NCBI GenBank assembly: GCA_004794785.1
Contig: SJOL01005766.1
Span: 7,326-71,325, forward strand
DNA from: Opisthorchis felineus
Taxonomy: Eukaryota; Platyhelminthes; Trematoda; Opisthorchiida; Opisthorchiidae
Length of the DNA: 64,000 nucleotides
Direction: 5' to 3'
Shown here: positions 2,175 through 46,905 of the stretch, one piece after another
Layout: every line of letters starts with the position of its first letter
How positions within the stretch are numbered: position 1 is the stretch's first letter
The notes under the pieces: generated by a model
Told to the model about the DNA's origin: nothing
Database searches by the model: none
What the model saw: only the letters and a program-made list of their open reading frames with translations
Made by a program: the position numbers and the translations under genes

Positions 2175-2400
2175 TGATTTTGATCAGCGCTCGTTCGGGT
2201 CTATGCGTTGGCAATACCCCTGACTCCCAAATATCTTTTACACCTGACTTCCCTCCAACAGCGACACCAGTCGGTTTACTCGGTTTCAATATTGACCATA
2301 CTACTGAGACGAAAGTAGCCATTTGTCTCGTTTGCGAATTTCTCCCTCTCTTCACCTCCACTTACATTTTTCATGACGTTGGCCATTATCCCAACTGTCC
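2175..2400 (+). pseudogene. C2H2 zinc-finger gene remnant (first finger)
   Basis: Translation around 2317-2380 gives one finger with exact C-X2-C-X12-H-X3-H spacing (CLVC ... HDVGH). The HX3H ending matches finger 1 of the two intact paralogues in this window, whose other fingers end HX4H. At DNA level the finger also resembles finger 1 of the broken copy at 46.4-46.9 kb (both read TGTCTC, then TG[TC]GA, then a TCCAC-rich block). No good finger 2 follows; the frame stops at 2437. It could be chance, but spacing and DNA similarity together favour a decayed family member. Confidence 0.45.
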
Positions 2401-2465
2401 AAGGTCACTCACAGTCAGCAGCGGTTTTAAATTTTAGTTCAAGCCAACCAGTCTCATTACTGTCT

Positions 2466-3495
2466 GGGGTGCTCGAAATCTTTCGTTCCTTCGCAACGCT
2501 TGAAAAATAAGGTATTTGCAGCGGCGTTTATATGCATGCTGCCTGATGGGTGCACCTGGCCACTGATTTTTGATGAAGAATTCATGCGAGCGGTTCTTGG
2601 CTACACGTTCCTGTCGACCCCATCTCATTTGGGCAACTAGCCTCATACAGATGCCTGGCCAATGGTTTGCTACACTGGGACGATAAAGTTAGAGTTTGTT
2701 CATGGACAGCCGTTTCAAGAATAATGCCTTTCTAATGTGTAACCTCTTTCGATGCATCACCTACAAATCAATTTTCTAGCCCAGATTATCTTCCCAAGAG
2801 GCACTGAAGATGGATCGGTTTCTTGTAAAATGAGCCAATCTACGCTGAAAAGCCGAGAAGCACTGCACAACCGTTTAATCCTTTCTGGGGAAAAATTGGC
2901 AGTGCGCAGCTCACGAAATTCAGAGAGTCCTGAACCTGTGACACTGTCGGCAATGGTCGAAAAATTAAACTTTTGGCCACGAGCGTTTGAAAAGCAGCGT
3001 GATTTGCTTCCACTTGGGTTTTTTATCGGATGCGCAGAAAAGACATGAACGTCTCTTATCACTTTTAGGCAAATTCTGATTTGCACTGACGCGTCAGTAC
3101 CTCGCGAATATCCCTCCACATGCCTTACTAATGTCATCTCAAGCAATCGAATCGAATAGGTTCGCGGTATCTATTTGTAAATGATAAGTCTGCTACCTTT
3201 CCCGACTTGTGACTTAATGTGTTTGCTACGAAACCTTGTACATAAATAACGTGAACTACCGCTGAATGTAGTCCAAGTGGAGAGAGAGAGAATTGTTTCA
3301 ATTTGAGATGTGGTCTTGCATGAGAAACCTAAGCATTTCTTTTCATCGAAATAGGCGTTTCTATTTGGAAATCTGTGAAAAGCTGTTGAGCATCACCCAA
3401 TGCGTTGATTTACACATTTTTTCCGAGCACGAAATTTGTGAAAGAGAGACATGCCACACATGGGAACGGGGAAAGTATTACATATTGAATGGTTA
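2466..3495 (+). repeat. Unclassified dispersed repeat R2, copy 1
   Basis: Two blocks match a second copy at 11386-12655 in the same order and orientation. Block one (2466-2835) shares long near-identical runs such as GAATTCATGCGAGCGGTTCT and CTCATTTGGGCAACTAGCCT. Block two (3165-3495) is more decayed but shares the TATCTATTTRTAA start, GCAYGAGAAACC and TTTGTGAAAG. The DNA between the blocks is not alignable by eye. I recognise no coding domain and cannot name the class. A short GA microsatellite sits at about 3278-3291. Confidence 0.7.
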
Positions 3496-3499
3496 ACTT

Positions 3500-5090
3500 A
3501 AACACCGACCATACCGGATTTCCTTATGGCTGAATGGCGGCAAAGACGCCTTCGCCACATGTATGTTGGAATGGCAAACTTCCAATCAACTATGCAAGTC
3601 TGACAGGCCATGCATCCGTGATTTCGTTTCTAGCCACACAGAATTGGCTGTTTACAAGCGGAGCATGGTGTGTCGGGCCCCGTCCAGCTCACAGGCTCAG
3701 CTACTGCTTCCAGTCTGATTGCAGTTATCCTATTTCATCAGCGTCTGGGGAAAACTCTTACGGGTAATACAACCCACCTTTTTTCTCTACGGACCCGGCA
3801 AGCTGGACACTTCCGGGGAACTAGTGATCTTTGAATATTCCCGACCAATGAAGCAAAAGTTGTCATTCATCGGAGAGGAACACTATAGAAGTGTGCAACT
3901 CCTATTGCCCCGTTGAAGAATAGTCTACGATACTTGTCCCATTTGGGTAGGGAATTCGGCCAGACGCGATCATTTCTGAGAAACAGGTTCTTTAGAATTA
4001 AGAAATTGTAGCAGAAATCGTGCAAGCCCTGAGATTCGCTGGCCCTCATGTCCCACTCAAACCCAGACTGTACGCAATCCGCAAAAGAGAAACTCACCCC
4101 CACAAACTAATTTGGTTTTAACCAAAGAGTTTCAACTAAATCCCGTCTGAGCTTTGTTCATGCATGTGTTGTTCTATTGAGAACTCAACTGCGTGGTGCA
4201 CTTCTTACGGAGTGACATTTCTTCAAGTCGATTCGCTTACCTGGTTTTTCCATAGATGACGAAGGGAACTGAGGTCCCAGTAACCCAGGCAACGAACTTG
4301 GCCTTGCACCTTCTTGCGTCCTTATCATTCGTAGGAGAACAGTATATTTTAGATTTGGTTTGTGGTGTTCCAGAATGAACGAGTTTTAACCCAACTCTCG
4401 CGATAGCTTGCCATTTCAACTTAGAAATGGCCAATAAATTTTCATGTACGAGGAAAACATGGGGCGACCACTCTGTCTCAAACTTATTCATGTTTGCGTG
4501 GTTCTTAAGATATCATGCGATAAAACCGGAAGAACCCGAAGGACTGTTTTAGGTTTCGGAAAATATTTTCGGAGAAACTTGTCTAACATTTCAGTTATTA
4601 GAACCTGGGACAATAGAGGAAGAACATAGGAGTCTGCGTTTGTGTCTAATTACAATGCATGTGGACAAACATATGGACAGATTTCAATAACTGAAACCAA
4701 CACACTGAAGGCCCGTCATTGAGTGATTATTTTCAATGCAGACATCCCATATTTGTTGGTTGTGATGAGAACAACACAAGCAAAACCCTGCATAAAATGT
4801 TAATGTTGCTTGGATTTTTTCTCATGTTAGTGCGTTATGAAAACTGATTTTGGAATGTCTACAAAAATATAGCATCTCCAGAATGATAATCAGGTAGGTG
4901 AAAAGTAGTTTTGTTTCCCCAAAGGGTGGATTGTTGGGGTTGAACTTAAACCCCAGTAGTTAGCTGGGTCAATACCCTCTCTCTACATCAGGATGATATA
5001 CACACACAGAATAACGTGATTAGCTAATGATCAACTCGGATACCAAAGTTGGTCATTACGATCAGTATGCATGCGTATAACCACTACATC
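3500..5090. other. Intergenic; one weak exon-like open frame on the minus strand
   Basis: The only notable item is an open frame on the minus strand at 4506-4241. It ends at a consensus-like splice donor (CCAG then GTAAGC on the minus strand, at about 4243-4238) and is preceded by an AG after ATATCTTA. The peptide has no recognised domain. It could be an internal exon of an unseen gene or chance. Confidence 0.2.
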
Positions 5091-5105
5091 TCAGTTAAGG
5101 AAAGA

Positions 5106-5114
5106 ATATAAATA
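5106..5114 (+). promoter_or_regulatory. TATA-box-like element
   Basis: ATATAAATA lies about 50 bases upstream of the ATG at 5161. Initiation about 30 bases downstream would leave a leader of roughly 25 bases. It supports the candidate gene starting at 5161 but is not proof; such strings occur by chance in AT-rich DNA. Confidence 0.35.
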
Positions 5115-5160
5115 GAAACCTACCGTCTTCCAAGCTGATGTGAGGAAAGCTGTCTTCGAA

Positions 5161-5227
5161 ATGATACCGTTTGTTTTGATAATAACGTTGGGGATTTTGA
5201 AAAATACAACTGCGGTCGGAATTCATC
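5161..5227 (+). CDS. Candidate first exon of a small secreted protein
   Basis: ATG at 5161 opens 22 codons starting MIPFVLIITLGILKNTTAVG. That is a hydrophobic core of about 12 residues followed by a small, polar stretch, as in a signal peptide. The exon ends after the first base of codon 23, directly at a strong donor (GTGAGT, 5228-5233), giving a phase-1 intron. A TATA-like element lies just upstream. A pyrimidine-rich acceptor at 6253-6254 could join it to a short cysteine-containing exon. First exons that encode signal peptides are common in flatworm secreted-protein genes. I do not recognise the protein; gene identity is inferred only from this arrangement of signals. Confidence 0.35.
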
Positions 5228-6254
5228 GTGAGTTCTACCATCTACTGTTGTTAAATGTAATTAGACAGCCACTGACCCAACGATTTAAATGAAAGATTTA
5301 AAGATTTGTTAGTGGATATTTGTTGACAGCCCTGTGGTGGATAATCAACCTAAACCATCTGTAAGACGTTCAAAGTGGTATTACTTGATCTGGGATGAGT
5401 GAGGTGTATTGTTTGAGTTGTGAGTTTTAAGAAATCAAATTTCGGTCCACACTGGCTGTTAGCGTAGTTGAGATTGGTATACCACTGACGCAATGAGTTT
5501 GCCCTAAGTGCGTTCTTCATCCACATGGGAACATGTGATGGATCGCCAGCTGGGATAAAGTGCACCGATCGTTTGATTGTCGCAGTTTGAGGGATTTGTA
5601 GAATTTACATTCACGTCGATGTCTTTTGAACAGTGCTCCTTCTGCCCTTGAGGATCCATCTAGGTTGTCTCGGTCGATGCGTTTTCTTCGGAAATTCCGG
5701 GTTGTTGTGATAGAGGAAGAATTTTAGGTCTCAAGATTACAGTGGTCAGTACTACAAAACAGTGACATGCGTACGGTGTTCGTTCGTCCATTTCAGTTAC
5801 GAAGCTGAATGGTCTGTTTGGGGAATACGCGCCTCTGTGTAAGTCAGTACATTCGAATATAACCACAGTGTGGGTTATCTTTTAAAAAAACACGTCGTCC
5901 TTCCATTCCTGTAATTTCTCCATATTTTATTCACTGTTTAAGGAAGGGTTTTATGTCAGTGTCGGCCAACCGGAAACAAGGCAAATTGGACCTCGAGGAA
6001 ATAATTTCCCATCTCAATCCCACCGTTTGAGTACAAGTACACTTGAATGCGATGTTTTTGTCTGACACTGGGTGCTCCGTACTGCGTTTCCCAAAATTCA
6101 AGGAATCCAATTCGGGCACTGTCAATCGACTTTTGTATCCGAAGTGAATAGTTGTACATTCTAAAATTCCGTAATCAACGTAAATGCTCCATTTGGCCAA
6201 CCGTGAGTAACGGAGATGGTTGTATGGATATCGGTTCTATTATTTTACTTTCAG

Positions 6255-6344
6255 CACGATGCAGGGCTCCTGTGAATGCATTTGAATGTGTGGTGCGATG
6301 CCATGTAATTCGGAAAGGCTTAATTTCTCCAAGTAAATCGTGAC
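6255..6344 (+). CDS. Possible second exon of the 5.16-kb candidate gene
   Basis: The acceptor (TATTATTTTACTTTCAG, ending 6254) has a good pyrimidine tract. Continuing in phase 1 from 5227 gives about 29 codons (RCRAPVNAFECVVRCHVIRK, then nine more residues) before TGA at 6342-6344. The three cysteines fit a small secreted peptide. Other exons may lie between 5228 and 6240, and a donor-like CCAAGTAAAT at 6329-6338 could instead continue the gene. Only transcript data can decide. Confidence 0.25.
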
Positions 6345-9043: not shown

Positions 9044-9092
9044 CCATGCTGAATACAGATTTCATGCTGTCGATGCTGATGATGATAATGTG
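9044..9092 (+). repeat. Short LINE/SINE tail fragment, copy C
   Basis: The run TTTCATGCTGTCGATGCTGA followed by TGATGATAATG matches the tail of the LINE copies (ATGTCATGCTGTCGATGATG). Only about 50 bases match. It lies upstream of the zinc-finger exon, probably within its intron. Confidence 0.55.
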
Positions 9093-9294
9093 TCCTTGTA
9101 GAAACTTCACACCACATGATGATCAGTTTGTGCGTATCAATAAAATGGTAAATCTTTAGTAAGTTGATCATCGTAAATTCGTGCCTAAATTCACACATTG
9201 CAGGTTGTATCAATACGATGTGTGGACTGTGCCAATGATTGATAGTTTTTCTGTGATATTGACTAGTATTTTCCCTGCATTCCCTCCTTAGCAG

Positions 9295-9902
9295 CTGGTG
9301 GTGCAGAACAGGCAACCAATAAAGATGAGGATTTCACCACAGCAGATTTTCCCGAGGCTACGATGGAACGAACCGGGAGCTTGACTACTTCATCAAACCG
9401 GACTGATCAGAAGAAACTTCACCGTTGTTTCGTATGTGATAAAACATTTTGCTTTTTATCATCATTGTTACAACACCAAAAGACTCACTCGACTGATCGT
9501 GACGCTCATTGCAATTTGTGTAGTCGATCGTTCAAGCTGTCGGATTCTCTTGTTAGGCACATGAGGAAAACACACTCGGATGTGGAGGAGTTGACTCCGA
9601 AGACGTCAAGTGAAAGAGTGCGCGAATCAGAGAAATTGGGAAACCCGTGTCCGGAATGTAGCAAGTGTTTCTCACAGTGGAGGTATATGCAGGCGCATAG
9701 AAAATTGGTCCACGGAGCAAAAGGGGAGCGTTTCGTATGCGATAAATGTGGAGTTTCCTTCAGACACAAATCAAGTATTTATCGACATTTCAAGGGCGCG
9801 CATGGGAAGCATGACCGTTGGAAATGTGCACAATGTGGGAAGACGTTTACCCGTAACTGTGGTCTCAGGAAACACATGGTGTGTTTTCATGAAAAACTGT
9901 AA
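9295..9902 (+). CDS. C2H2 zinc-finger protein, terminal exon (paralogue 1)
   Basis: Probable sequence-specific DNA-binding regulator acting in the nucleus. Five C2H2 fingers follow each other; numbering from the methionine codon at 9363 they lie at residues 22-42, 50-71, 96-117, 126-147 and 155-176. All have C-X2-C-X12-H, ending HX3H in finger 1 and HX4H in fingers 2-5. Fingers 2 and 3 are separated by a 24-residue linker containing TSSERVRESEKLGN, conserved in the paralogue at 31.7 kb. The frame is open upstream of 9363 to a pyrimidine-rich acceptor (CTCCTTAGCAG, AG at 9293-9294), so 9363 is probably internal and an upstream exon supplies the start through a phase-1 junction. Stop is TAA at 9900-9902. 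No effector domain is visible; the upstream exon was not found. Confidence 0.88.
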
Positions 9903-11189
9903 TGTAACACGAGGTTCCAGAGTGCTGAACGGGCCCATTGACAATTAATTTTTTGAGATGAACCTTTTGAATGAAGTCCAATTTCGTTTGCTGAGCTGAA
10001 AGTATTCTACTTCACGAATGATTGGCTGCGTTTCAAAGTAGCGGATGAGAGACTGAGGCTTTAATAGGCTTTCACTCAAACGGAGGCTACGTAAGGCTTG
10101 TCACACATCCCTGCGCCTTCACATATATGCTTGTCAAGAATGGATTTTGCTAACCTAAACTGGACTAGCCAATTGCTGGATTGCGATCATTTAGAAGGCA
10201 TAGCATGCTGTGCACAATCTTAATTCGACCAGGATTTTTTCGTCTGTAGGTTTGGTAGTCTCGCATATGTGTGGTAATCTGACAATTTACAAATTGCCGC
10301 ACGTACTATGGTTAACTTACTCGAAGGCCTTGTTAGGTTTCGATCACGCAGCGAGCAAATAATAATATGCGCAGATTGTAACCACATTCTATCCCAGCTA
10401 TGTTGCTTGATCCCGACTCCTAGTACGGCGAATAGTAAGAAGACGAAAACCTTGCACACAACTTTAATGATCCGAACAACACGCGATTAACAGGCGATTT
10501 CGGAAAAATGACAATAAACATATGTATCCATAGTTTGACCTTGAAAGTGCCGGAAGTTCGTTAGCACACACAAAGATACAGTTTTTAGGGATATTGATAT
10601 CCCCAACAGGCCTTCAGTTGAGAAAGTTTGGCTCACAATATATAGTTGATGGAGAAAACTAGTTAGAGACAACCTAACTTGTATGTGTTCCACATATTTG
10701 AGTCATCCCTAGTTCTCGCTTCTAACAGTGCATCACCCATGCAGTCATTGAATTTTTGGTAAGTTGGGTGACAAGACCAGGCCCAATAACCAGAGTGTTA
10801 GCGGATTTCAGATTCCTCAACAGATTTATCAAACACGTTCTATGCGTTCGGCTAACGACGCTAATCAGACGATTTGATGGATGATTTTAAGTAGGTTACC
10901 TGTCAGTGAGAAACAACAATGAAGCGAAAATTTGAAAAACAAACCCGCACCATATATCCGACCAAAGATACATAATTGAACATTGTTTGCCGGTGAAAAT
11001 CACGCCTAGCAGTCGAATTCTACCAGTGAAGACTAACCAAGCATTATAACCACGTGATCATTCATGGCGCGATCTTAAATGTCTTCATTTCCATTTTTCA
11101 ATTCATCTTCTTGGGTAATTTCATTGTCTCCGAATGTTTATGTTAAAAATAGCAAAAATTACCAGTATTTCTGCGCATTCCCTGTAGTA
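9903..11189. other. Downstream flank of zinc-finger paralogue 1; no gene seen
   Basis: No obvious polyadenylation signal stands out right after the stop, and no open frame beyond about 80 codons is present. I see no named repeat here. Confidence 0.4.
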
Positions 11190-11325
11190 ACGATGGTCAA
11201 AACGCATGTAGAAACGATTTCTCACGTAGCTATTGTCCACCTCAAGAAGCACATTTTGTCATTTGGTTTTGTAAAATTTGTGGCTTGAACCTTGGTTTCG
11301 ACAAGTCAAACCTCAATACTACTGC
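11190..11325 (+). pseudogene. C2H2 zinc-finger gene remnant (fingers 3-4)
   Basis: In one frame the DNA reads CRNDFSRSY and, further on, FCKICGLNLGFDKSNL. These align with finger 3 (CKKSFSRWD) and finger 4 (CETCGIVLYTKDNL) of the paralogue at 31.7 kb. Shared DNA landmarks are ATGTAG...TTTCTCAC, GTCCAC and TTTGTAAAATTTGTGG. About 15 bases are missing between the two finger halves, the finger 4 histidines are lost and a stop follows. This looks like a decayed duplicate of the same family. It lies just upstream of R2 copy 2, as the 2.2-kb remnant lies just upstream of R2 copy 1. Confidence 0.5.
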
Positions 11326-11385
11326 ACGCAAGTAGATGCAAATAGTCCGAGTTGCACAGAATCTTTCGTCTAGGGGTTGAGGTCT

Positions 11386-12655: not shown

Positions 12656-12964
12656 TGAGAGTTCATACTCAATTTTTTAATGGCTTAGTAGCGAATCTAC
12701 CTTATAATTTGTATGCAGGAGTTGCAAAATTCCGACTGGCAATGGAAGTTGTCTGTCATAAGCCATGGAGTGGCCGATTCCTCAACCAGCTTCAACAATC
12801 TCGAGTTGCTTCGATTTTCACATGGCTATTCAGTATACTGCACAGATTGCAGTAAAACAGTGTAATGACAAGCTGAGTGGCACCTTTGTCCTATTGTTTC
12901 TTATGTTTCGAGCCAAATATTTCAAGGAAGGGTGCATTTCACCCGATTTGGTGTATCGGCCACA

Positions 12965-15597: not shown

Positions 15598-15822
15598 CAC
15601 AGATGGGTTGACGAACATGTTTTCGGCAAGGTCTTTTCAAGTCATACAGTTGCAAAGGTCAAGAGAGCAGTATTTAACATATTTGAATGAGTATGGTGTA
15701 CATGAATAGGAAATCGAGTGAGAGACGACATTGGCTACCTATCAAAGAACGACTAGTTCAGGTCACCAATAGGGTGACTTGAGTTTGTCAGTGCGGGTAG
15801 TGCTGTGGTTGTGTTCACATGT
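15598..15822 (+). repeat. Left arm of long inverted repeat around PLE endonuclease
   Basis: About 225 bases that are nearly perfectly inverted relative to 16179-16404, with only scattered mismatches and a one-base gap near the inner end. The outer end begins ACACAGATGGGTTGACGAAC. The arm is the reverse complement of the final endonuclease codons plus 3' flank, so it is an inverted partial copy of the element's own 3' end. Confidence 0.9.
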
Positions 15823-16247
15823 ACTCATTCTCTTGCTGCTGTGCAGCGGAATACATCGGACGCACAACGAGGCAACTCAGCCAAAGAATAAAGGTACACA
15901 TTCCACCCTTGCTAGCTTCTGGAACTCGGAGGACAATAACCAGCTCAGTAGTACAACACCTAGCAGACATGGCACACAACGTGATACCCAGCCAAAGCTT
16001 CCGAATCGTTTACAAGGCCCCAGCTAATCAACCCAGATCAGTACAGCAACGCACAATCGCAATGGCTGAAGCTATCGCCATACGACATCGCGACCCGATC
16101 CTTTGTCGGCAAAAACGCTTTGTCCGTGAGTTGTACTTGTCATGGACAAACTCATCTCCCCCCACACTTACACCCTGTGCTGAACACACAACCACAGCAC
16201 TACCCGCACTGACAAACTCATGTCACCCTATTGGTGACCTGAACTAG
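15819..16247 (+). pseudogene. PLE GIY-YIG endonuclease domain (5'-truncated)
   Basis: The open frame gives 142 residues. Near the start is the GIY-YIG core EYIGRTTRQLSQRIKVHIP (residues about 11-29), preceded by a cysteine cluster (SCCC) that fits the zinc-linked PLE endonuclease. Further on are the conserved glutamate region (AMAEAIAIRHRDPILCRQK, with a likely catalytic E) and the terminal ELYLSW. The endonuclease nicks target DNA for target-primed reverse transcription. The frame enters directly from the inverted left arm with no upstream RT, so it is a fragment. Its last about 20 codons and stop overlap the right arm. Confidence 0.85.
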
Positions 16248-17501: not shown

Positions 17502-20411
17502 TTATCCCAGAGAACAGGTTCTTTGTAAGCCAACTATTGAATTGCTCATGTTTTGTGTAATCGTACTCGAATTTGTTCTTTTTCGCCAACCTAAAAGAGA
17601 ATTTGTTTTGTGGATATTCCCGGATAACTTGTTGACCGTGGGTATGTGACTAGGATGAACAGATTGGTTCTGACCAACTGTACCAATTCTCCATGTGCAG
17701 CCTGCCTGTCCACACTCAGTGCTGTCCGGAATATCTTGTTCACTAGTGCTTCGACATGTCCGACAGTAAGATGCTGCTCTGTCTCGATCCAAATGCATGG
17801 CCCACAAACCAAGCCGAAGGCACTGCATGGTAATGTAAGCCTGCGAAGTATCACATAGTAGATGGAGTAAAACGGAACATGCCGTGGTGCTGTTAGTTTG
17901 TGGTCTCGGTTTGTCCCATGACAATAGACATGGTTTTATGAGCCGTAATAAACGAGTGCGTTCAAAGTTATGAGGTTTCGGCTTGAGGCGCATAGCCTGT
18001 ATCAAGGCAGCCACATCCCTCCACGCTTGCATCGATATACTTGGCTTGGTTTCACAACTAGGCACAGTGTGGCTTTTCAGCTCGTTCTGTAAACCAACTG
18101 TATCAATGAGTAACAACAGTCCACCAGTGTTGAAAATGCGCTCGGCAACAGGTATGTTCGAACGCGTTTGTACTTTTACCAGAACTATTTTGTGGGCCAT
18201 ATCAACGGGTGCCGCATTCCTTCGTCCACGAGCAAGACGGCCATGGCGAATACGGCGTTGTATTAGTTCACATACTTGTATCACATCCACTAGACTGGCA
18301 ATTTCTTGGTGTTCTAACTCTAACAAGAACAAAGTTGGATCCGCGTTGTTTTCGGCTAGCAGACTTGATTGAGTGAAATTCACAGGCTGGTTGGCCAGCA
18401 GATCGAACTCAGGTTGTTCCGAATCCAGCGGTACCAACATCATCGCCAAGCTTATTTTGTATTCCCGATAGACCGACTCCTCGCAGACAGTAGCTGTGTC
18501 AATGATGGTCTTTATATTGATATCTTGTAACAGGTGTAATAAAGAAAGTCCAAGAAATCCGTATAGTGATGCAAACTCGTTGGACCGGAATAACTCCGTG
18601 AAGCTAGCATTCGTCGTAGAGGTAAACATTTGGTGAAATCGGGATTGACGTTGTCGAAACGAGGACGCGCCTTTGATGCGAGAAGATGAATTATTTTGCC
18701 TCACGCAACTTACGGGTTCTCCAAATAGGGTCACACTCTTTCCTGAGTTTTTAGGTCCAACTGTTGTAAAACAAGCATTCAGTCCGTCCACCACGCCATC
18801 TATGGTGGTACTCACCTCATTATATAGTTCCAGTGGAGAACAACTTCCGGGTGGCATAACGTGGGACAGTTTACAAAGTACGGGAATTTCATCAAATCTC
18901 CGGATTTTCGATGTTTGCTGCTTCTCTTTCGCTGGTGGATTGAATAATATCTTGGAAGATGATAAAAACTGAATACACGACTCATAAACAGTGGGTTTTA
19001 ATGAAGCGAAAACCCGCACGCGCCCTAGTGCATTTTGTAGGTTATACATCATTTTACGTATTTGTGACTTGTCATCTTTGAAAAATTCCATTGCTTGACA
19101 CTTTTCTTGTACCTCTTTAAGCTGTTGAGCTGTGATATTGGATTCTAGTAAAGCTTCTTGACACTGTCTTTCACAGTGAGATTTGATACTTTGTAGCCTT
19201 TCGAAATCTTGCATAATTTCACGTTTCTCCGTCTCCTTGGCCTCAAGTACCATCCTCCTTCGGGCCAGTTCTGCCGTCAGTTGCCGTGATTCTGCCTTCA
19301 GATATTTGTGCTTCATAGATTCAGCAATAAAACGACCGTTGGTTGCTTCGAGCTTCAAACCATTGGATCTTGCGGCGGCCAACTTTGACTCTAATTCGTG
19401 GTTTTGTTGTGAACAATATTGCAACTCAAGCTGTATCCGCATCTGACGCTGCTTGTGTCTACTCAAGTCTGATTTCAAATTCTCAATAAATAAGTTTAAC
19501 GGCTGGATTTCTTCTCGGTTAAGGTGTTCTTTACAGCGCCTGTTTTCCAAGTTCCTAATCAATACAGGAGGAGGAGTGTGTGATAGAAGGTGATCCGCGT
19601 GATCAGCCTGATCTGCCGTTGTTACAGAGGAATTCTCATTCGTCTTCACACTGTTATCTACCTGATCACCATGTTCATTGGTCAGAAATTGGATAGGGGA
19701 TCTGCAATCGTCCTTTCTTCTTGATCGCAAGATTGATTGGAGAAAATTTGGGTGGTTAGCCCTGGAGCCCGTTTGTATTTTCATATTGTTGGGTGAGAAG
19801 CAGGCATCTGAACCCGTGTTGTCCGAAGCTCTGTCATCAACGTGGTTAGAATGTCTCTCTGCTCTAGTTTGCTTTTCTTGACCTGCATTATCATCACCTT
19901 TGCAATCAGCTTGTGCAATTTCTGATGTTGAGGGACTTAGGCGTGCGTGAGAGATAGACAGAAGTGGCCTCGTTTTCCGGTGCGAAGACAAATGACTGTT
20001 GTCAATTGTTGTAGGTTTGAATGGCTTTGAGATTCCGCGGGATGGTCTGTGTCTGCTGAAGTTGTCTTGTGAATGACTGAAATTAATGCTCGGCGTGCTG
20101 ACATACCTCCTGGAGGAGGCTTTATTTAAGTGTTGCAAAGAGTCTGAGACCCTGACTTCCAGCCTCGGAAAATCGGGTTCCTGAACAACTTTTAAGCCAG
20201 GACGTGATGGGTAATTTTGTTCTTCGTAGTTTGGATCTCGATCTGGGTTGTGTGATTCAGTGAATGATGTACACTTGTTTCGGTAAATTACAGGACGTGT
20301 TTCGTGTTTTTGATCAGAAGTTTCCGTCAGATTTACCGTTTGACATTTGTTTTGTTCTTCGCCTGTCTTCCAGTACGAATGTGTCTGACTAGTGGTGGCC
20401 TTGTTGCCCAT
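17502..20411 (-). CDS. Divergent kinesin-14-like protein with C-terminal motor domain
   Basis: Single uninterrupted frame of 969 codons, ATG at 20411-20409, TAA at 17504-17502. Order: polar, low-complexity N-terminus (1-290), coiled coil (about 300-445, KLAAARS, ELARRRMVLEAKETEKREIM), kinesin-14-type neck into strand 1 (IRKMMYNLQNALGRVRVFAS, 451-470), P-loop GPKNSGKS (552-559) after VVDGLNACF, then degenerate switch I (around 731-740, no SSRSH), switch II DTVG (770-773, in place of DLAG), and helices corresponding to alpha-4 to alpha-6 (793-875), then a short tail. Kinesin-14s are usually minus-end-directed microtubule motors in spindle and cilium biology. The Walker lysine and switch II Asp and Gly remain, but canonical GQTGSGKT and SSRSH are changed, so motility is doubtful. 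KIF25-like or KIFC-like are the closest guesses. An intronless form could indicate a retrogene, though the length of the open frame argues for selection. Confidence 0.9.
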   Translation of the reverse strand: MGNKATTSQTHSYWKTGEEQNKCQTVNLTETSDQKHETRPVIYRNKCTSFTESHNPDRDPNYEEQNYPSRPGLKVVQEPDFPRLEVRVSDSLQHLNKASSRRYVSTPSINFSHSQDNFSRHRPSRGISKPFKPTTIDNSHLSSHRKTRPLLSISHARLSPSTSEIAQADCKGDDNAGQEKQTRAERHSNHVDDRASDNTGSDACFSPNNMKIQTGSRANHPNFLQSILRSRRKDDCRSPIQFLTNEHGDQVDNSVKTNENSSVTTADQADHADHLLSHTPPPVLIRNLENRRCKEHLNREEIQPLNLFIENLKSDLSRHKQRQMRIQLELQYCSQQNHELESKLAAARSNGLKLEATNGRFIAESMKHKYLKAESRQLTAELARRRMVLEAKETEKREIMQDFERLQSIKSHCERQCQEALLESNITAQQLKEVQEKCQAMEFFKDDKSQIRKMMYNLQNALGRVRVFASLKPTVYESCIQFLSSSKILFNPPAKEKQQTSKIRRFDEIPVLCKLSHVMPPGSCSPLELYNEVSTTIDGVVDGLNACFTTVGPKNSGKSVTLFGEPVSCVRQNNSSSRIKGASSFRQRQSRFHQMFTSTTNASFTELFRSNEFASLYGFLGLSLLHLLQDINIKTIIDTATVCEESVYREYKISLAMMLVPLDSEQPEFDLLANQPVNFTQSSLLAENNADPTLFLLELEHQEIASLVDVIQVCELIQRRIRHGRLARGRRNAAPVDMAHKIVLVKVQTRSNIPVAERIFNTGGLLLLIDTVGLQNELKSHTVPSCETKPSISMQAWRDVAALIQAMRLKPKPHNFERTRLLRLIKPCLLSWDKPRPQTNSTTACSVLLHLLCDTSQAYITMQCLRLGLWAMHLDRDRAASYCRTCRSTSEQDIPDSTECGQAGCTWRIGTVGQNQSVHPSHIPTVNKLSGNIHKTNSLLGWRKRTNSSTITQNMSNSIVGLQRTCSLG

Positions 20412-20434
20412 TTGTCGGGAGGTGGTGCTCTTTT

Positions 20435-20452
20435 CTACTCTGTCAATGCCAT
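20435..20452 (-). promoter_or_regulatory. Short upstream ORF before the kinesin start
   Basis: On the minus strand an ATG at 20452 opens five codons (MALTE) and stops at 20435, 23 bases before the kinesin ATG and out of frame with it. If the transcript starts upstream of this point, the uORF could lower translation. Confidence 0.3.
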
Positions 20453-20491
20453 GACAGTATGTGATGGATGGCTACAGTCAGCTGCTCGTTG

Positions 20492-26615: not shown

Positions 26616-26619
26616 TAAT

Positions 26620-29600: not shown

Positions 29601-31714
29601 AAAAAGCCAAGCCCGCAACTGACACTTTAGAGCGGCCCATGTCAAAATTCAATAGTCCAACCAATATCACAGCATAAGAAACTCAAGGACACGAAAGCAA
29701 ACCATCCCAAACCATCACTTTGTGTTTCTTGAGGATTTGGGAAATCATTGCGAATTGCGAAGTGTCTGTCTTGTCAGCAAACGACGACATGTTGTTTGTT
29801 GTCATGGTCATTCACAGAAGCTGGTTATCACGGGGTACGGAGCGATTATGTTCATACCGGAGCAGCTCAAAAGGACGACGTTTTGCAGAAAAGAACTACG
29901 TTGGCTTTCGCAAGTTTCCTGGGTCTTCTTTCATCTCGGTTTAAAATGTTCCATAAGCAACGTAATGCTTTGAATTGGATGAAACAGCTTCGTTTCTCCT
30001 CGAATGAAGCTTGTTCACAAACTGCACGAATTATTCACCTGAAGAGCACTACCCAGGTGAGAAAGGGCCATTAACATAATGAGAGTCTGTTATGGATCCA
30101 GTTTCGACAAGGTGGTTGGACCCAATGGTTGGTCAGCAACAAACAACTAGCCTTTTGTAAGGTGTAGTAACGAGACGCACTATAAACGTTTTTGTGGATA
30201 ATAGCCAATTAGTTCAGGTGAGATCACTGAAAAACCGAGCACACACCTGAAACTAAGAGAGAGAGAGAGAGTACCTATAAAATGGCAGCGTAAAGTGTCT
30301 GGTTTTTCTGCAAAGTACCGGGATGATGATTTTCAGTTTGGTGACACTGCTCTGGGCCACCGCATCATTTACCATAGCCCATAATCGTCGTATGTTCTAC
30401 CGTTTGCTGTAATCAACGCTTTAGACTGCGGCTTTATTGTGAAGCACTGATTAACTGCACTGATTAACTTATAACTGGTCATAGTTTTTGTTACATGGTA
30501 GAACCATTACCACCACGTTTATCTGTAGCAGTGGGATTAACTTTTGAGTTAATTTATAGAATAGTGTTTTTAGGTTCATTCCTACTCAGAACGTTTTATT
30601 TCCACACCCACTTTTGTGATGTATTATGCCAAGTTGTTCACTATCTACGTTGTTACTGATTTCGTAAGACAGAGGTAATTATTCATTTTTTTCTGCGATT
30701 ACAGTTCCGCTGCTAGATGGCCTATTAGTGGAATACGCTCCGAGATGTAAGTCAAGTGTGCTTGCGGACATTCATTCCGGTTATCGAAGCGAATTGTTTT
30801 AATTAATTGTGCTTTTAGTTGGTTTCACAGCGCCATTTTCGAATGAGACAAGTCAGCTGAGAGTGCCCCAGAAATCTGGCAGAAGCTAAAAGTCGAGAGG
30901 ATTGTTATGACATCTAAGGTCCCTGTTTTGTCACAATTTACAATAAGCCTACTGTTTTGTCAGCACTGCTCGAGATTATTCATGGTTTGGTTCCAGAATT
31001 TCATACCACCGCATATGTCTAATCTGGCGTTAGCCGAAACAGTGGTCTATTGCGGCAAGCTGTTGCGGGAAACGTTCTCCCGTTTCGCTTGATCTGGTGG
31101 GGCTGAGATCAGTAACACTTGTGCATGTAGTTAGCATTCGGTTTTCGGTCATCCGAAAATAGATGGCTGGCAATGTGTCTTAATGTTGGTAGCTCCATTG
31201 GATTGGTTGGCTGATGGTCAGTTGTCAGCTGACCTGTTTGCCGAGCTTGACAACTGGCTTGCAAAGTTCCGTCTCCTTGCAGGAACCCTCCTCTACGCGC
31301 TTGCGTCGAATCCACTGTATTTCTACTGCTACCCACGCGGAGTGAGGCTGTCTATTCCACATAAAGTTCATCCACATATTCGGTTAACTTCATTTGGACC
31401 TGGCAACAAAGTAATGGTTACTGTGATACGGCTCCTCATGTAGTGCTTGACCTGAAGATTTTGTGAGTGACTGAACACGAACATTAAAATGGCTAGATTT
31501 GGATCCAGTTTCAGGATAAAGGCTTATTGATCGAGTTAAGAACGATGGGTACGCATAAAACTGGCTATACAGGTTAGTAAAATCACTAGTGGCTAGGTCT
31601 GTTCAGAAAGATTCCAAAAAGATCCTCACTTTATGTCTCAATTTCTCTGGTAATCTACCAAGTACACTTGAAGTTTAATGACTCACACTCTGGCTTTTTA
31701 TTCGCTCACAACAG
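26620..31714. other. Intergenic or intronic; no supported gene
   Basis: Contains small dispersed pieces only: a segment at 27515-27545 with a relative at 43840-43870 and an inverted relative at 29145-29170, and a GA microsatellite at about 30257-30270. A B-box-like GGGTTCGATCTCC sits at about 27949-27961 without a convincing A box. The upstream exon of zinc-finger paralogue 2 should lie in or before this region but was not identified. Confidence 0.35.
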
Positions 31715-32346
31715 CTGTGCTCGACACCGGATCGGCATCTGAGACAGCGGTGGGTTATCCTTGCGTCAACTCCCCTGAGGAAACGACTCGGCCCGACAAA
31801 ACTCCGGGTGACACACCAGCGAGGGCGATCCACCTAAACAAACACCACTGTCCAGTGTGCAATAAAAAATTTCGTTTCCTCTCTAAAGTCTTATCCCATA
31901 TGGCGGTTCACTCAAGTTTTCGTGAACTTCATTGTACTCAGTGCACAAAAACGTTCAAATACGGGCACCGCCTTCGTGATCACATGAAGCACGCACATGG
32001 ATATAAAGCTGACGTACCTCCAAGAACATCAAGCGAAGAAGTTCGCAAATCTGCTGAGTTGGGTAATCTGTGCCATGAATGCAAGAAGTCCTTCTCACGG
32101 TGGGACACCCTGCAGAGACACCGGAACTCTGCACACCAAAAGAAAAAATGTTATGTATGCGAGACATGTGGAATTGTTCTCTACACAAAAGATAATCTTT
32201 TTGATCATATCAAAAGCATGCACAGGACGGATGATCACCCTAAATGTGGGGTGTGTCAGAAGACCTTCCAAAAACCTTATAACCTAAAGAGACATGTTGC
32301 ATGCGCACATATCACAGAACAGCAAAATGTGACCAAAGCGTGTTGA
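31715..32346 (+). CDS. C2H2 zinc-finger protein, terminal exon (paralogue 2)
   Basis: Probable nuclear DNA-binding regulator, paralogue of 9295-9902. Numbering from a methionine codon at 31678, five C2H2 fingers lie at residues 58-78, 86-107, 132-153, 161-182 and 190-211. All have CX2CX12H, with HX3H in finger 1 and HX4H in the rest, exactly as in paralogue 1. The linker between fingers 2 and 3 is again 24 residues with TSSEEVRKSAELGN. The ATG at 31678 is probably intronic: a good acceptor (TTTTTATTCGCTCACAACAG, AG at 31713-31714) sits inside the open frame at the same phase-1 position as in paralogue 1. The exon would then begin at 31715 and needs an upstream coding exon. Stop TGA at 32344-32346. 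Confidence 0.88.
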
Positions 32347-32790: not shown

Positions 32791-32799
32791 AGTCGAGGC

Positions 32800-36315: not shown

Positions 36316-36319
36316 TTCA

Positions 36320-36530
36320 AAACACTGTATAATTGCGTACCGTCTGATGCAAGATATGGCTGCCAACCGATGTCAGTGGCGATCTTGTTGTCAGTTTCTA
36401 TCCCCGTCCACCTTTATTCCTTCCTTCACAATAAGGCTTTCAAATAAATCATGGTTGTACGGCAGTGAAGCATCGGTGTTGAACACTGATGTCATGCTGT
36501 CGATGATGATGATGATGATGATGCGAGCAT
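36320..36530 (+). repeat. LINE 3' end, copy F, with (GAT)n tail
   Basis: Encodes the RT C-terminus MQDMAANRCQWRSCCQFLS (36347-36403), then jumps to the 3' UTR with about 90 bases missing compared with copy A. It ends in the shared tail GGCAGTGAAGCATCGGTGTT through TGTCATGCTGTCGATGATG and a run of GAT/ATG repeats at about 36500-36525. It is the best preserved tail in the window. Confidence 0.85.
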
Positions 36531-36534
36531 AACG

Positions 36535-42500: not shown

Positions 42501-43125
42501 CGAAAACCTAAGTTTTATGGTGAAAAAATGCACCACAGCATAGTTGCTGAATTCCTGAAGTGAAAGTATTTGGCCCTTACAATTTTTTGCGGCACATGGC
42601 ATGCGTAGAAACAATGTGCATAAGGCAGCGATGTACCAACCGTTTATTTTGGTTCCCAGTAGCGTTCAGTTGCAACAGACTGGTTTGTCCAGATGCGAAA
42701 CTACGGTGCTTGCGGTGTGGGCATGAAATGCCGAAGCAACTGTTTGAAACACAGCAGACATTGTGGAACTCACTTAGACTCTGTTATTCATTGGTAGTTG
42801 TCCAGGTGGTCTTCGGTCTGTTACCCGAGCTTGGCAACCAGGTTGCAGATGCGGCTGGGTAGGCGATGGATTGCTTTAGTTTATATACTTTATAAAGACA
42901 GGCTGATATATACTGCTGTGATTCTCTAACAGAAACATGGTCATCTCATAATCCTATTGGCCCGTTCTGAAGTATGTTGCTTTGTGTGCTATATCCCTTC
43001 CATTCGACTGATGCGTTCAGTAGCTTTCGCCCGGGGACTTTTTTTCCTATCCCGTTTGTTCTTTTTTGACGATTTCTGTTGTGTCGTGGTCTACCACCTT
43101 TTCGTCAGATAGTCGCTAAAAACCA
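36535..43125. other. Intergenic; no supported gene, one promoter-like hairpin region
   Basis: Open frames stay below about 110 codons without recognisable domains. A TATA-like TTATATAAG (41362-41370) is followed by an inverted repeat CTGTTGGAA (about 41379) / TTCCAACAG (about 41431). The meaning is unknown. Confidence 0.35.
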
Positions 43126-43129
43126 CCTA

Positions 43130-43235
43130 AAACCAAGGAGGAGCCGCACTTTGCTGATGGCACCTCGATTGGTGATGAAACCTTTAGAAGCTAATAGTCA
43201 AGCTGGGTGAACAGGTCAACGATCGCCTGGTCAGC
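43130..43235 (+). repeat. PLE-like non-coding fragment, inverted relative to 13.44-13.53 kb
   Basis: Shares CACCTCGATTGGTGATGAAA and, downstream, GTGAACAGGTCAACGAT with the reverse complement of 13440-13530. Upstream of the hairpin is CTGATGG. Assigned to PLEs by the hairpin it shares with the inverted arms at 15.76 and 16.22 kb; it has no coding content. Confidence 0.45.
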
Positions 43236-43514
43236 CACCAATGAACATGCCAATAATCAGGGACAATGTTTTTTTTCACCAGAATCGGCATGCAGGACAG
43301 ATAGGGAATCCAACCGCCAGGTGGTAAAGCAAAAAATGAGGGCTCATTATGTACCGACCCTCTTTCGGCATGTTCTCTTCTTAAACAACTGTCGTAAAGC
43401 AAATTCATCTGTTGTTTTCTAGATCCACGTTTTTATCCACTCTTTTGGAGTGGAGTGATCACGTCTAATTTGGTATGCAATTAGTTAATTGGTTCTAAAA
43501 ATACAAAGCATGCA

Positions 43515-43850
43515 AAACCTGCTTTTTAAAACTGATTCTGCAGGAAGTAACATCGGAGTTGGCCGGTGCGTCAAGCGCTCACGAGAAAACTATCTCGTGA
43601 AAGACTCGATTTCGTCTTTTAAATCCCATATTTCACTTCGAAAATCAGGGACTTGCTTAGCAGACCGGATCTACCCGAGTAATCTGACTCAGGAAAAGTG
43701 CTCCATCATTACGTGTTGGTGGTTGAGGGATTTTGTAGAATACATACTCACATGACTACCGCTTTATGGTTAACCAACTGAATCAAATTCTGCTTTTACT
43801 TGGGTTCTAAAACCTGCTTTTTAAAACTGAAGACCGCTGAAAACTCTTCA
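43515..43850 (+). repeat. Short direct repeat pair about 290 bases apart
   Basis: CCTGCTTTTTAAAACTGA occurs at about 43518-43535 and again at 43812-43829, each shortly after GGTTCTAAAA. It could mark a local duplication or the ends of a small insertion. The sequence between has no recognised feature. Confidence 0.5.
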
Positions 43851-45474
43851 GCAACCTTATGAGTAGTGTATTATGTCTATACATGTGTCACGATATGTCG
43901 AATATCGTGCCAACTTAAACATGAGGCGGCCTGGTGCAGCACACTCAGTTGCTTAAAAACATCATAAACGAGAGATTCAGCTGAGTTCCAGGTGGGTCTC
44001 CTGTCAAAACCAAATTGGTATGCAAATGAGTGTATTTCCCTTACTTATGCATGTTACAGACTATCAACAGTTCATTTCCCAACGTTAACTCGAAACGTTA
44101 TCTTCTGTGCCTCTTACATATTTTTGATTTCGCGAGCATTTGGATGCCTGATGGTCAGTGGTCAAAAAGTTGTTCCGAATGGTAAAGTATGAAGGGTAAA
44201 AATGTTTCATATTTTTCACGCTTCACTGAGCTCACTGGATTTTAATTCCAAATGTTTGCAAACCATATGGCTAGGGTCTAACCAGCATATCAACAGGTAG
44301 TATCCCATTATTCTAGTGGTCTCCTTAGCCCATAATGAAATAATACTTCCACCCAAAGTAACTTGGCATAGTTCTCAAACAATCCAGTCTAATTAAGTCG
44401 TTTAAAAATTTACAGTATTCAGACGACCTCATTGGACAAATATGGTGATCGCTTGAAATCAACAGATGCATTTTTTTTAAAGATGAAATTTTCTTTCCTG
44501 AAGAATTATGCCTTCACCAAGCATAAAAAACCTATTCCCCAAATTCTGTCTTTCTTATGAAAGTTTTCAATCCGTGTGCTGTCTCAGCCTATTTGGTTTA
44601 AACAGTCCGTCGCTCCCAAAGAATTATGTAGCAGTCAGTAGTATAGTATGTCTTAAAATCTGCCTTGCTAATTCACACCAGTTCAGGCCATGGTAGCTTT
44701 TTAATCGCTACTGTGTCCCATGAGTCAAGACTAATGAAATACTAATGTTGGTTACGGACCCATGAATGCGCCCTGTATAAAATTCCTATTGGGGTAATCT
44801 TACAAGATAGTACAGTAAAACACAGGAGAAATAGCTCTTCCATAAATTCGTTCACAATTATGCATTGTTTGCAGATCACTTATGAGTTTCAAGAAATATC
44901 GGGCGGTCTAAAAGCTTTGGTGTTATTAGGTTTCTGAGAGTGCAGCACAAATTTTAATGATGACTTCGAAATAATTCATCTACATTTGTTAGCGCAATTG
45001 TGATGAGGGCGGCAACAATCATCCATGTGGTTCTTCCATGGATTTGTTTGGAAATTTTAGTCACTTTGACCTATTTTAAATAAGATTTGGGCAACTTAAT
45101 TCAACGATTAATTGTGCCCGCTCCTTTTGCGATGTCATATACTTGGGTAATTATTAATCTGCAGCAGAATATGCGCACGTCTCAGCAATCGCTTTTCAGC
45201 CATATATCTCAACCTCACGTGGTCCAACATATAGTTCAAATGACGGGCAGGTAGACTGAAGTAAAGAGAATGTGACAAATCCCCAAGTTGGCAGACGAAG
45301 TGTTTCTGTAAACGTTAAGGTCGAATCAACTGCTAGAATTTGTATGCATGAAGAAACCGTGGAAGGCATTAGGATAGTCTCTGCCATCCAAGAAAGTCTA
45401 TTTCGCATACCTTGACCCTCTTGACCAAGTGCGCGGATGGTTTGGTCACACACACATTCTGATTAGAAGATTTT

Positions 45475-45610
45475 AATCGTCTGTCTCTTTTCTCGCAGGC
45501 CTGAAAATATCACAGTTTTATGATTGAAAGGTACCGTCACGAAGAGACTGGACCTTACTGTGGTGTGGCGGTTTGTGTATCTCGGCGATCCACTGAGCTA
45601 TACTGGGAGG
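45475..45610 (-). repeat. tRNA-like A-box region (minus strand)
   Basis: The minus strand contains CAGTATAGCTCAGTGGATCG (45597-45578), an excellent tRNA-type A box, with a weak B-box-like GGTCCAGTC about 45 bases on. No complete cloverleaf forms, so it is probably a SINE head or tRNA pseudogene abutting the plus-strand SINE. Confidence 0.35.
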
Positions 45611-45639
45611 TGTCCGACACTCACAGAGTCTCTCATACC

Positions 45640-45960
45640 AGGTTAGTCAATGGGTAGAGGTCTGAGGCACACAGTTTCCTGGCCCTCCAGGTTGAGGGTT
45701 GGAACATGTGTGGCGACGTGTTCCATAGAATTAATAACGTACTTGCATATCCAGCCCAACACCGCTGCCTTGCGGTTAGGCTTTTGAGCCAAAGGCTTTG
45801 GTTGAGGGTCCTACTCGTCCTCCTGTCTAGTGTGGGCGCCCTGGCAGTATCCCAGCCCTTGTGTAACCATGACATTTACAGCTATACGGCAGTGAAGCAT
45901 CAGTGTCAACACTGATGTTGCTGTCTTTGATGATGTTGATGATGATGGTGATGATGACTG
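45640..45960 (+). repeat. tRNA-headed SINE sharing the LINE tail
   Basis: A tRNA-like head at about 45643-45715 has A-box-like TTAGTCAATGGGTAGAGG and B-box-like GAGGGTTGGAACATG. A unique body of about 150 bases follows, then the last 60-70 bases (CGGCAGTGAAGCATCAGTGT through a GATGATGTTGATGATGATGG run). Those bases match the 3' tail of LINE copies A and F. SINEs that borrow the tail of a LINE are usually mobilised by that LINE's RT. The body has no counterpart in the LINE copies. Confidence 0.65.
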
Positions 45961-46369
45961 AAAGGTGTTTGGCGAGCTAACCCAAAAGTCCAGGTGTTTT
46001 ATTTACATCACCACGAGTTTAGTGCAGAATGGTGGAAGAATTTGTAAGTAGTATACTTCTTGGGGATAAGAACACCGCGATATTTACCTGTTGGGAAAAT
46101 GGAGACCTGCATTTATACGAAATCACACTTGATCGAACAAGCTACTTGTAAGAAACAAGTAGTAGACAGCCCACGCAAAGACTCGCCGATTTCGTGCAGA
46201 CCGGAAAATGAGTTGAACGTGCATTTGGAAAAGAGTATAAATGAAAGATTTACTTTGTTCAATTACAAACACACACTATAGCTTCCACTGGCGTATAACA
46301 GATATAAATTCCAGTTTAAGAACAAAACAAAAAAGCCGCATCTTGCAGTTGCCTTGAGTTTGTGTGTGT

Positions 46370-46905
46370 TATGTGCGCATTTCACGGGTTCTTTCAGCCA
46401 GTAAAAACGAGTAAACGTTCTCCGATGATGTTTGCAGTCATGGCGATCTTCCGATCTGCGCATGCCTCTTATGGGCCGAGACAGAACACACTGGAGGCTG
46501 GAAAAAAACACCGCATTCTTCTCGTTTGGGTACAGATATCTCATGGCGCTGTTAAAGGTGAAAAGAATTTCCCTTAATAAGGACATAGTTGACCGAACCT
46601 ATCCAATTCAGCAACTCCCTCACTTGATGTTTTTGGTTGCACGTCAATGTTATATCGTGCAGGTTTTTTATGTGACAATGTAGACCTCACTGACGCCTAA
46701 ATATGAATGTGGAGTTGTAGCGAAAGTTTCCATCACATATGAGACAGGAGTGAATCTTGCCTCGATCTGTTGCTGGGATGTTCAGGGGGTGTTTTCGGAT
46801 TAGTACCACATCCAGTATTTTGGACACTGGCTCCGTCCTCCGCCGTTTCACTTGCCCTGGATTCCTCACCAGTTTTTGAAAAGGAATAGCTGACAAACGA
46901 CTGGT
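46370..46905 (-). pseudogene. C2H2 zinc-finger pseudogene, third family member
   Basis: Read on the minus strand: an N-terminal stretch with ASETAEDG (cf. ASETAVGY in the 31.7-kb paralogue) and finger 1 CLICDGNFRYNSTFIF followed by a stop. Then come the family linker PKTSSEGVAELDRFGQLCP, a broken finger 3, and a finger 4/5 region where SRPIRGMRRSEDRHDC aligns to FDHIKSMHRTDDHPKC. Last is finger 5 CKHHRRTFTRFYWLKEPVK with several zinc ligands lost. Most of finger 2 is deleted, and reading requires at least three frame changes and passes stop codons. The linker match makes the family assignment secure. Confidence 0.8.

What the first reader, a model, noticed from the sequence alone, without database searches (positions are those of the whole stretch)
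2175..46905. A local C2H2 zinc-finger family: two intact terminal exons and three remnants
The sequence shows intact five-finger exons at 9295-9902 and 31715-32346 and related broken pieces at 2175-2400, 11190-11325 (+) and 46370-46905 (-). Finger 1 has HX3H and fingers 2-5 HX4H in both intact copies. That points to birth-and-death evolution of a lineage-specific regulator family, which is not the usual large KRAB-type expansion because flatworms lack KRAB.
Basis: partly seen in the sequence, partly recalled or inferred. Interest (0 to 1): 0.75.

Follow-up and report, generated by a model that had tools for sequence, protein, structure and literature searches.

The report
Liver-fluke zinc-finger genes with signal peptides
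The two zinc-finger pieces in this stretch of liver-fluke DNA look like the last exons of two old members of a large gene family whose first exon resembles a secretion signal, so these DNA-binding-type proteins may be released by the parasite instead of working in its own nuclei.

Summary
Partly confirmed; the more interesting part lies outside the reported exons. The genome is an Opisthorchis felineus assembly. Both five-finger exons are real (9292-9902, 31715-32346). One remnant (about 46338-46881, minus) is real; 2175-2400 and 11190-11325 have no support. The family is genome-wide: 150 listed matching stretches on 45 contigs, 132 of them clustered, 58 with stops.

Upstream, 20 of 22 loci read carry a 42-nt symmetric exon and, before it, a 67-nt exon (73 nt in one) that encodes a signal-peptide-like start; both join in phase 1. 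Four of 16 annotated opisthorchiid members begin with such a leader; 12 do not. Zinc ligands are frozen (omega 0.03), DNA-contact positions evolve only slightly faster than the other finger surface, and 0 of 72 short linkers are TGEKP-like. Best reading: a family of predicted secreted C2H2 proteins, not KRAB-like nuclear regulators. Splicing, secretion and host action are inferred; no transcripts or proteomics were searched. A 2021 paper predicted single secreted, nucleus-targeted zinc-finger proteins in sister flukes; my literature searches showed no description of this family.

The parts
5161..5227 (+). Gene A exon 1 (67 nt): ATG, 22 codons of signal-peptide type (MIPFVLIITLGILKNTTAVGIH) plus one base, then GTGAGT donor (phase 1)
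   Evidence: Structural scan, coordinates, hydrophobicity. Not found by a DNA profile built without the window (E = 1.4, partial), so it rests on length, phase, position and hydrophobicity.
5797..5838 (+). Gene A exon 2: 42-nt symmetric (phase 1-1) exon, (L)TKLNGLFGEYAPL, AG before and GTAAGT after
   Evidence: DNA profile without the window's own copies E = 4.6e-15.
9292..9902 (+). Gene A terminal exon (611 nt) with five C2H2 fingers and stop; acceptor NAG-NAG (9292 or 9295)
   Evidence: AlphaFold2 model with five beta-beta-alpha fingers, mean pLDDT 74.
30323..30389 (+). Gene B exon 1 (67 nt): MMIFSLVTLLWATASFTIAHNR plus one base, GTATGT donor (phase 1)
   Evidence: DNA profile without the window: top hit but E = 0.19.
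30705..30746 (+). Gene B exon 2: 42-nt symmetric exon, (L)PLLDGLLVEYAPR
   Evidence: DNA profile without the window E = 2.4e-6; a near-identical peptide (PLLDALLVEYAPR) is joined to the orthologous finger exon in Clonorchis CSKR_113887 (P0005).
31715..32346 (+). Gene B terminal exon (632 nt) with five C2H2 fingers and stop; no ATG codon before finger 1
46338..46881 (-). Decayed member of the family (finger-exon remnant with frame changes and in-frame stops); no exon 1 or 2 profile match nearby
   Evidence: nhmmer 46360-46699, 6.7e-15.

Best explanation
Genes A and B are two old members of a large opisthorchiid multigene family. Each gene has three predicted coding exons: a 67-nt exon with the start codon and a cleavable signal peptide, a 42-nt symmetric exon that can be kept or skipped without changing frame, and one long terminal exon with a short variable head and five zinc-binding C2H2 fingers (fingers 2 and 3 separated by a conserved 24-25 aa spacer). 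The product would enter the secretory pathway, lose its leader near V-T-S/A|Q, and be released as a small basic finger protein. Tandem duplication and decay keep the family large, and the finger surface diversifies while the zinc core is held fixed, as expected for proteins that meet a changing partner outside the worm cell (host or environment). Shown by sequence: exons, phases, family size, selection pattern. Inferred: splicing, secretion, and any host-facing role.
For: 20 of 22 loci read have exon 2 (42 nt in 20 of 20, AG/GT bounded, phase 1-1) and an exon 1 (67 nt in 19, 73 nt in one; ATG in 19, GTG in L048). Of 23 finger exons, 22 begin with C so that the codon joined to exon 2 is serine. 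Control with the same criterion (set): one 67-nt hydrophobic ATG-to-donor ORF in 506,044 b, and that one overlaps exon 2 of L046; 16 of 20 exon 1 copies meet it. 25 forward versus 3 reverse-strand hits in the same stretches with the looser filter. Profiles built without the locus or clade tested recover exon 1 in nine of nine loci outside the window (8.6e-11 to 6e-5) and exon 2 (5e-18 to 1.1e-6). Annotated proteins: P0025, P0027, P0030, P0032 begin with a leader of this type joined to the finger exon; P0003, P0005, P0019 join exon 2 to it. Nine of 23 finger exons have no Met before finger 1, so an upstream start is needed there. Zinc-core omega 0.03.
Against: No transcript or protein evidence was searched. 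12 of 16 annotated opisthorchiid members lack the leader in their models, and in P0027 it follows a polar stretch (38 aa before the joint). Exon 1 of A and B is not significant by DNA profile. Exon 1 omega is 0.67 on few sites, and its identity exceeds that of the next intron in only 5 of 6 well-aligned pairs, often narrowly. L048 has lost the ATG, and clade II copies hold a second, decayed exon 1. Two of 22 loci show neither exon. The fold matches DNA-bound structures, and zinc fingers are unusual outside cells (recalled).
Confidence: 0.7

Rival explanations
1. Nuclear transcription factors of a lineage-specific expansion that silence transposons (KRAB-ZFP-like), with the N-terminal exons being something other than a signal peptide or used only in some isoforms.
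For: C2H2 fold matches DNA-bound CTCF, ZFP568, PRDM9; clustered, decaying family resembles KRAB-ZFP dynamics; fast finger surface, contact positions slightly faster (ratio 1.23, 1.02-1.42); 12 of 16 annotated models lack the leader.
Against: No KRAB, BTB, SCAN or ZAD domain in A, B or five annotated members. No TGEKP-type linker in 72 short linkers versus 148 of 371 in 116 other C2H2 hits. Contact omega 0.90 is close to the rest of the finger (0.81) and to linkers (1.02). Signal-peptide-like exon in 20 of 22 loci.
Confidence: 0.15
2. Dual-location family: one transcript form with exon 1 is secreted, another (spliced-leader trans-spliced, started at an internal Met) stays in the cell.
For: Spliced-leader trans-splicing affects about half of O. 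felineus genes (47-61%, PMC6530080, passages); 14 of 23 finger exons have a Met before finger 1; annotated models differ in their 5' ends.
Against: 9 of 23 finger exons, B among them, have no such Met (B's listed M is a GTG read as a start). A start codon ending the spliced leader would enter exon 2 and 3 in the wrong phase (inference; that flatworm leaders end in AUG is recalled).
Confidence: 0.12
3. Member of the schistosome-type micro-exon gene (MEG) class.
For: Signal-peptide-like first exon and a small symmetric, skippable exon; fast-evolving mature part.
Against: MEGs have most of the coding region in very small symmetrical exons (PMC4350168, passages); here about 85% of the coding length of A and B sits in one exon of 611 and 632 nt.
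Confidence: 0.03

Closest known systems
KRAB zinc-finger protein clusters of tetrapods
   Same: Clustered, rapidly duplicating and decaying C2H2 genes with the fingers in one terminal exon (general knowledge of the family is recalled).
   Different: No KRAB; signal-peptide-like exon instead; no TGEKP linkers in the 72 seen; little contact-site focus of selection; five fingers with a fixed spacer.
Schistosome micro-exon genes (MEG)
   Same: Platyhelminth, signal-peptide start, symmetric small exon, fast evolution of the mature part.
   Different: One small exon only; the bulk of the protein is a zinc-finger exon.
Magnaporthe MoHTR1/MoHTR2
   Same: C2H2 zinc-finger effectors of a parasite, reported to reach the host nucleus and repress host genes (PMC10669146, passages).
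   Different: Fungal, two proteins; homology not tested; host entry untested here.
Clonorchis 'zinc finger protein 629' (H2KPV8) of Machicado et al. 2021
   Same: Opisthorchiid zinc-finger protein of 30.06 kDa marked present in one of three secreted-product data sets (PMC8318992, passages).

Membership tests
C2H2 zinc-finger proteins (Pfam PF00096) | CxxC-x12-HxxxH beta-beta-alpha fingers above Pfam cut-off | tested here: met
   74.2 and 69.7 bits versus cut-off 25.2; model with five fingers.
KRAB zinc-finger proteins | KRAB box | tested here: not met
   No KRAB in A or B terminal exons, nor in five annotated members including P0025, which is named 'KRAB domain-containing'.
KRAB zinc-finger proteins | Selection focused on DNA-contact positions -1,2,3,6 | tested here: inconclusive
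   dN ratio contact/other finger 1.23 (1.02-1.42) over 10 disjoint pairs; omega 0.90 versus 0.81.
Krueppel-type (TGEKP-linked) C2H2 proteins | TGEKP-like linkers | tested here: not met
   0 of 72 short linkers; 148 of 371 in other C2H2 hits.
Micro-exon genes (MEG) | Signal peptide at the N terminus | tested here: inconclusive
   Predicted by exon structure and hydrophobicity and present in 4 of 16 annotated proteins; no SignalP and no transcript here.
Micro-exon genes (MEG) | Most of the coding region in very small symmetric exons | tested here: not met
   One 42-nt symmetric exon; the rest is one exon of 611-692 nt in 23 members.
ZAD zinc-finger proteins of insects | ZAD domain (PF07776) | tested here: not met
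   Not among Pfam hits of A, B or five annotated members.
Secreted C2H2 nuclear effectors (MoHTR-like in action) | Enters host nucleus and changes host transcription | not testable with these tools
   Needs expression and localisation work.

The most novel reading that the evidence does not exclude
A carcinogenic-fluke lineage has turned C2H2 zinc fingers into a large, diversified set of secreted nucleic-acid-binding proteins that enter host bile-duct cells and act in their nuclei.
Probability: 0.15. Interest if true: 0.95.

Novelty: new variant of a known kind. Interest (0 to 1): 0.74.

Why it matters
Expanded C2H2 families are normally read as nuclear regulators, often in an arms race with transposons. 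A family of this size with a secretion leader would be a different use of the fold in an animal. Opisthorchis viverrini and Clonorchis are bile-duct carcinogens (PMC8318992 abstract), and a sister-species zinc-finger protein has been listed in secreted products, so the family gives a concrete and testable candidate set for how flukes act on host cells. It also shows that current gene models disagree about the 5' ends of these genes and give some members names (KRAB, ZBTB, ZSCAN) whose domains they lack.

Tried and rejected
Rejected: remnants at 2175-2400 and 11190-11325. Rejected: A and B as a recent local pair; the tree places B with a Clonorchis orthologue across a 100/100 split from A and the rest (midpoint root). 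Rejected: strong contact-site selection. Rejected: the annotated first exon of O. felineus P0003 as the general one; it lies 3.2 kb upstream of exon 2 in that locus, where the 67-nt exon is present too; I did not search the other loci for it.

Led nowhere: NCBIfam (0 hits for three proteins); tRNA scan; literature searches returned no paper, two unrelated listings; the O. felineus genome paper's main text has no 'zinc finger', 'C2H2' or 'micro-exon' (term search); a term search of PMC10547256 for flatworm words gave none. A genome-wide count of exon 2 was asked six times and never answered. An early idea that exon 2 joined to clade I finger exons gives a stop was an acceptor misreading of mine, corrected.

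Rows dropped and weak spots: one search tallied the 150 listed of 153 matches, and only 150 of 392 first-look candidates were scored; the weakest may be other C2H2 genes, and some matches may be pieces of one copy. One search used 10 disjoint pairs (20 of 26 exons); L023 in one pair has a stop, and stop codons were skipped. One search used 31 rows: 23 exons and 8 of the 16 annotated members; the L032/L035 exon 1 pair misaligned in the identity table (38%), which pulls exon 1 below the intron in the pooled figure (0.783 versus 0.840); it was compared ungapped for omega. The first profile test of exons 1 and 2 included the window's own exons and is replaced. The 67-nt length and the hydrophobicity limit of the control were set. 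Three contig lengths tie the genome to the CRM22 proteins; two other CRM22 proteins with identical sequence (P0003 in L017, P0022 in L028) are listed on contigs of 186,832 and 778,928 b against 171,761 and 769,937 b here, and the genome is 630 Mb against 684 Mb published, so it may be another version of the assembly.
Full report
What was checked. Copy A is an open frame at 9267-9902 with a splice acceptor at 9290-9294; copy B is an open frame at 31672-32346 with an acceptor at 31713-31714. Each has five C2H2 fingers (Pfam; strict pattern), finger 1 HX3H and fingers 2-5 HX4H. The remnant on the minus strand at about 46338-46881 is a true, decayed relative (in the reversed-sequence controls the best E was 0.2 and 2.4). 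The other two remnants are not supported by protein or DNA comparison.

Where it is. The window is G000:C825:7326-71325. Annotated O. felineus proteins of the family sit on contigs of 359,366, 92,351 and 201,914 bases, exactly the lengths of C814, C778 and C382, and the last 110 residues of five CRM22 proteins are found unchanged in the fetched loci (P0003, P0019, P0020, P0022, P0026; a sixth, P0031, was not in the locus tried). Two of those five are listed on contigs of a slightly different length, and the genome is 630 Mb against 684 Mb published, so this is O. felineus but perhaps another version of the draft.

Family size. The protein of exon A finds 153 matches in the genome at E <= 0.001, with only 150 of 392 candidates scored; B finds 150. 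Of the 150 listed matches for A, 58 have stops, 92 are 450 nt or longer and 66 of these have none; they lie on 45 contigs; 132 of 150 lie in clusters of two or more with neighbours within 100 kb; 101 neighbour pairs lie within 100 kb against a mean of 3.4 in 200 random placements. Frame shifts are not counted there, and the weakest matches may be other C2H2 genes. This supports birth and death, but not a local family: in a 31-row tree, B pairs with a Clonorchis protein (100/100) and is separated from A and the rest by a fully supported branch.

The missing 5' exons. Twenty upstream regions were fetched and compared with the two in the window. The cluster of upstream reading frames shared by the most loci on the coding strand was a short exon (20 of 22 loci); other shared stretches were on both strands or limited to fewer loci, as repeats would be. 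It is 42 nt long in 20 of 20, bounded by AG and GT(A/G)AG, enters and leaves in phase 1, and encodes (L)xELNGLFxEYVPL in most. The finger exon also starts in phase 1; in 22 of 23 members its first base is C, so that the codon joined to exon 2 is serine. An ATG exon had shown up in 11 loci. A scan for ATG, hydrophobic stretch and phase-1 donor in the 3 kb upstream of exon 2 then found a candidate in 17 of 20 loci, in 16 of them with a candidate of exactly 67 nt. The three missed were filled by homology: L040 and L045 fall under the hydrophobicity cut-off (1.54 and 1.44 against 1.7) and L048 has GTG for ATG. Two loci of 22 (L037, whose contig ends, and L047) show no significant match to either exon (the best for exon 1 in L047 is E = 0.038).

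Is exon 1 more than chance? With a criterion set after that scan (67 nt, ATG, donor, hydrophobicity 1.6 or more; met by 16 of 20 exon 1 copies) there is one other case in 506,044 b, about 0.003 per 1.5 kb, and that one overlaps exon 2 of L046. Profiles built without the locus (L042, L044, L045, L046) or without its clade (L031, L032, L034, L040, L043) recover exon 1 at 8.6e-11 to 6e-5 in nine of nine, but not significantly in the window: B is the top hit at E = 0.19, A is not found (1.4, partial). For A and B exon 1 therefore rests on position, length, phase and hydrophobicity. All 20 peptides contain a pattern near the end that passes a loose -3/-1 test, 11 of 20 as V-T-S or V-T-A before Q. 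I had no SignalP.

Outside support. Of 155 hits of an alignment of 24 members, 120 were listed, and 16 of these are named as opisthorchiid: 7 O. felineus, 8 C. sinensis, 1 O. viverrini. Four of 16 (P0025, P0027, P0030, P0032; two species) begin with a leader of this type, 22, 38, 25 and 25 residues long, and join it directly to the finger exon with a proline codon, as predicted if exon 2 is skipped; in P0027 the hydrophobic part follows a polar stretch. Three (P0003, P0005, P0019) join exon 2 to the finger exon behind other first exons. The other nine start inside the finger exon, are partial, or have unrelated 5' ends. Whether any model rests on RNA is not known to me. Names such as KRAB, ZBTB49 and ZSCAN12 are not borne out: Pfam finds no such domains in the three so named.

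Selection. In 10 disjoint close pairs the zinc ligands and core have omega 0.03; contact positions 0.90; other finger positions 0.81; helix positions 1 and 5 0.51; short linkers 1.02; spacer 0.55. The contact/other dN ratio is 1.23 (bootstrap 1.02-1.42). So the fingers must fold, but the fast change is spread over the surface. In seven pairs exon 2 has omega 0.31 and no indel; exon 1 has 0.67, and is more alike than the following intron in 5 of the 6 pairs that aligned well, narrowly in some. None of 72 short linkers is TGEKP-like, against 148 of 371 in 116 other C2H2 proteins of the search. The AlphaFold2 model (mean pLDDT 74, pTM 0.31) shows five fingers and a helix in the spacer; its best structural matches are mostly DNA-bound arrays, which is what any C2H2 array would give.

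Mechanism, with steps marked. Shown by sequence: three-exon layout, phases, family, constraint. Inferred: splicing; entry into the secretory pathway and leader cleavage; release as a basic finger protein (net charge -1 to +18, 22 of 24 at +8 or more, finger exon only except P0003); contact with a host or environmental partner. Least certain: binding of host nucleic acid or action in host nuclei.

Known or not. C2H2 expansions in animals are well known (PMC10547256: listing, abstract start and a term search). C2H2 effectors that reach host nuclei are known in a rice-blast fungus (PMC10669146, passages). Machicado et al. 2021 (PMC8318992; abstract and passages) predicted single secreted, nucleus-targeted proteins of O. 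viverrini and C. sinensis, among them zinc-finger proteins, one of which (H2KPV8, 30.06 kDa) is marked present in one of three secreted-product data sets; for it the prediction was the non-classical route. I could not obtain that sequence, so I do not claim it for the family. An O. viverrini expression paper lists one 'Zinc finger, C2H2 type' gene (T265_03732) in a table (PMC12742771, one passage), membership unknown. Searches, seen as listings except for the papers named here, showed no title or abstract start that describes a signal-peptide C2H2 family in flukes. MEGs (PMC4350168, passages) share leader and symmetric small exon but differ in the bulk of the gene.

Noticed in passing
window 17502-20471 (-): Intronless 989-aa open frame with a divergent kinesin motor (Microtub_bd 2.6e-6; Kinesin 1.2e-4, under its Pfam cut-off); unusual P-loop-like GPKNSGKS (motif recalled).
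   Followed up: no
window 15801-16247 (+): Open frame with EYIGRTTRQLSQRIKVH, which recalls the GIY-YIG endonuclease of Penelope-like elements (recalled motif; Pfam gave no hit).
   Followed up: no
L043 and L048, about 0.5 kb 5' of exon 2: A second, decayed copy of the signal-peptide-like exon beside the 67-nt one about 1.1 kb upstream (in L043).
   Followed up: partly
window 9290-9294: NAGNAG tandem acceptor of gene A: splicing could add or drop one alanine.
   Followed up: no
Clonorchis proteins P0023, P0025, P0030: Database names (ZSCAN12, KRAB domain-containing, ZBTB49) are not matched by SCAN, KRAB or BTB domains in Pfam.
   Followed up: yes
P0024 (O. viverrini T265_14052): Gene model fuses a family finger exon to a tail that looks like the end of a reverse transcriptase (recalled resemblance).
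   Followed up: no
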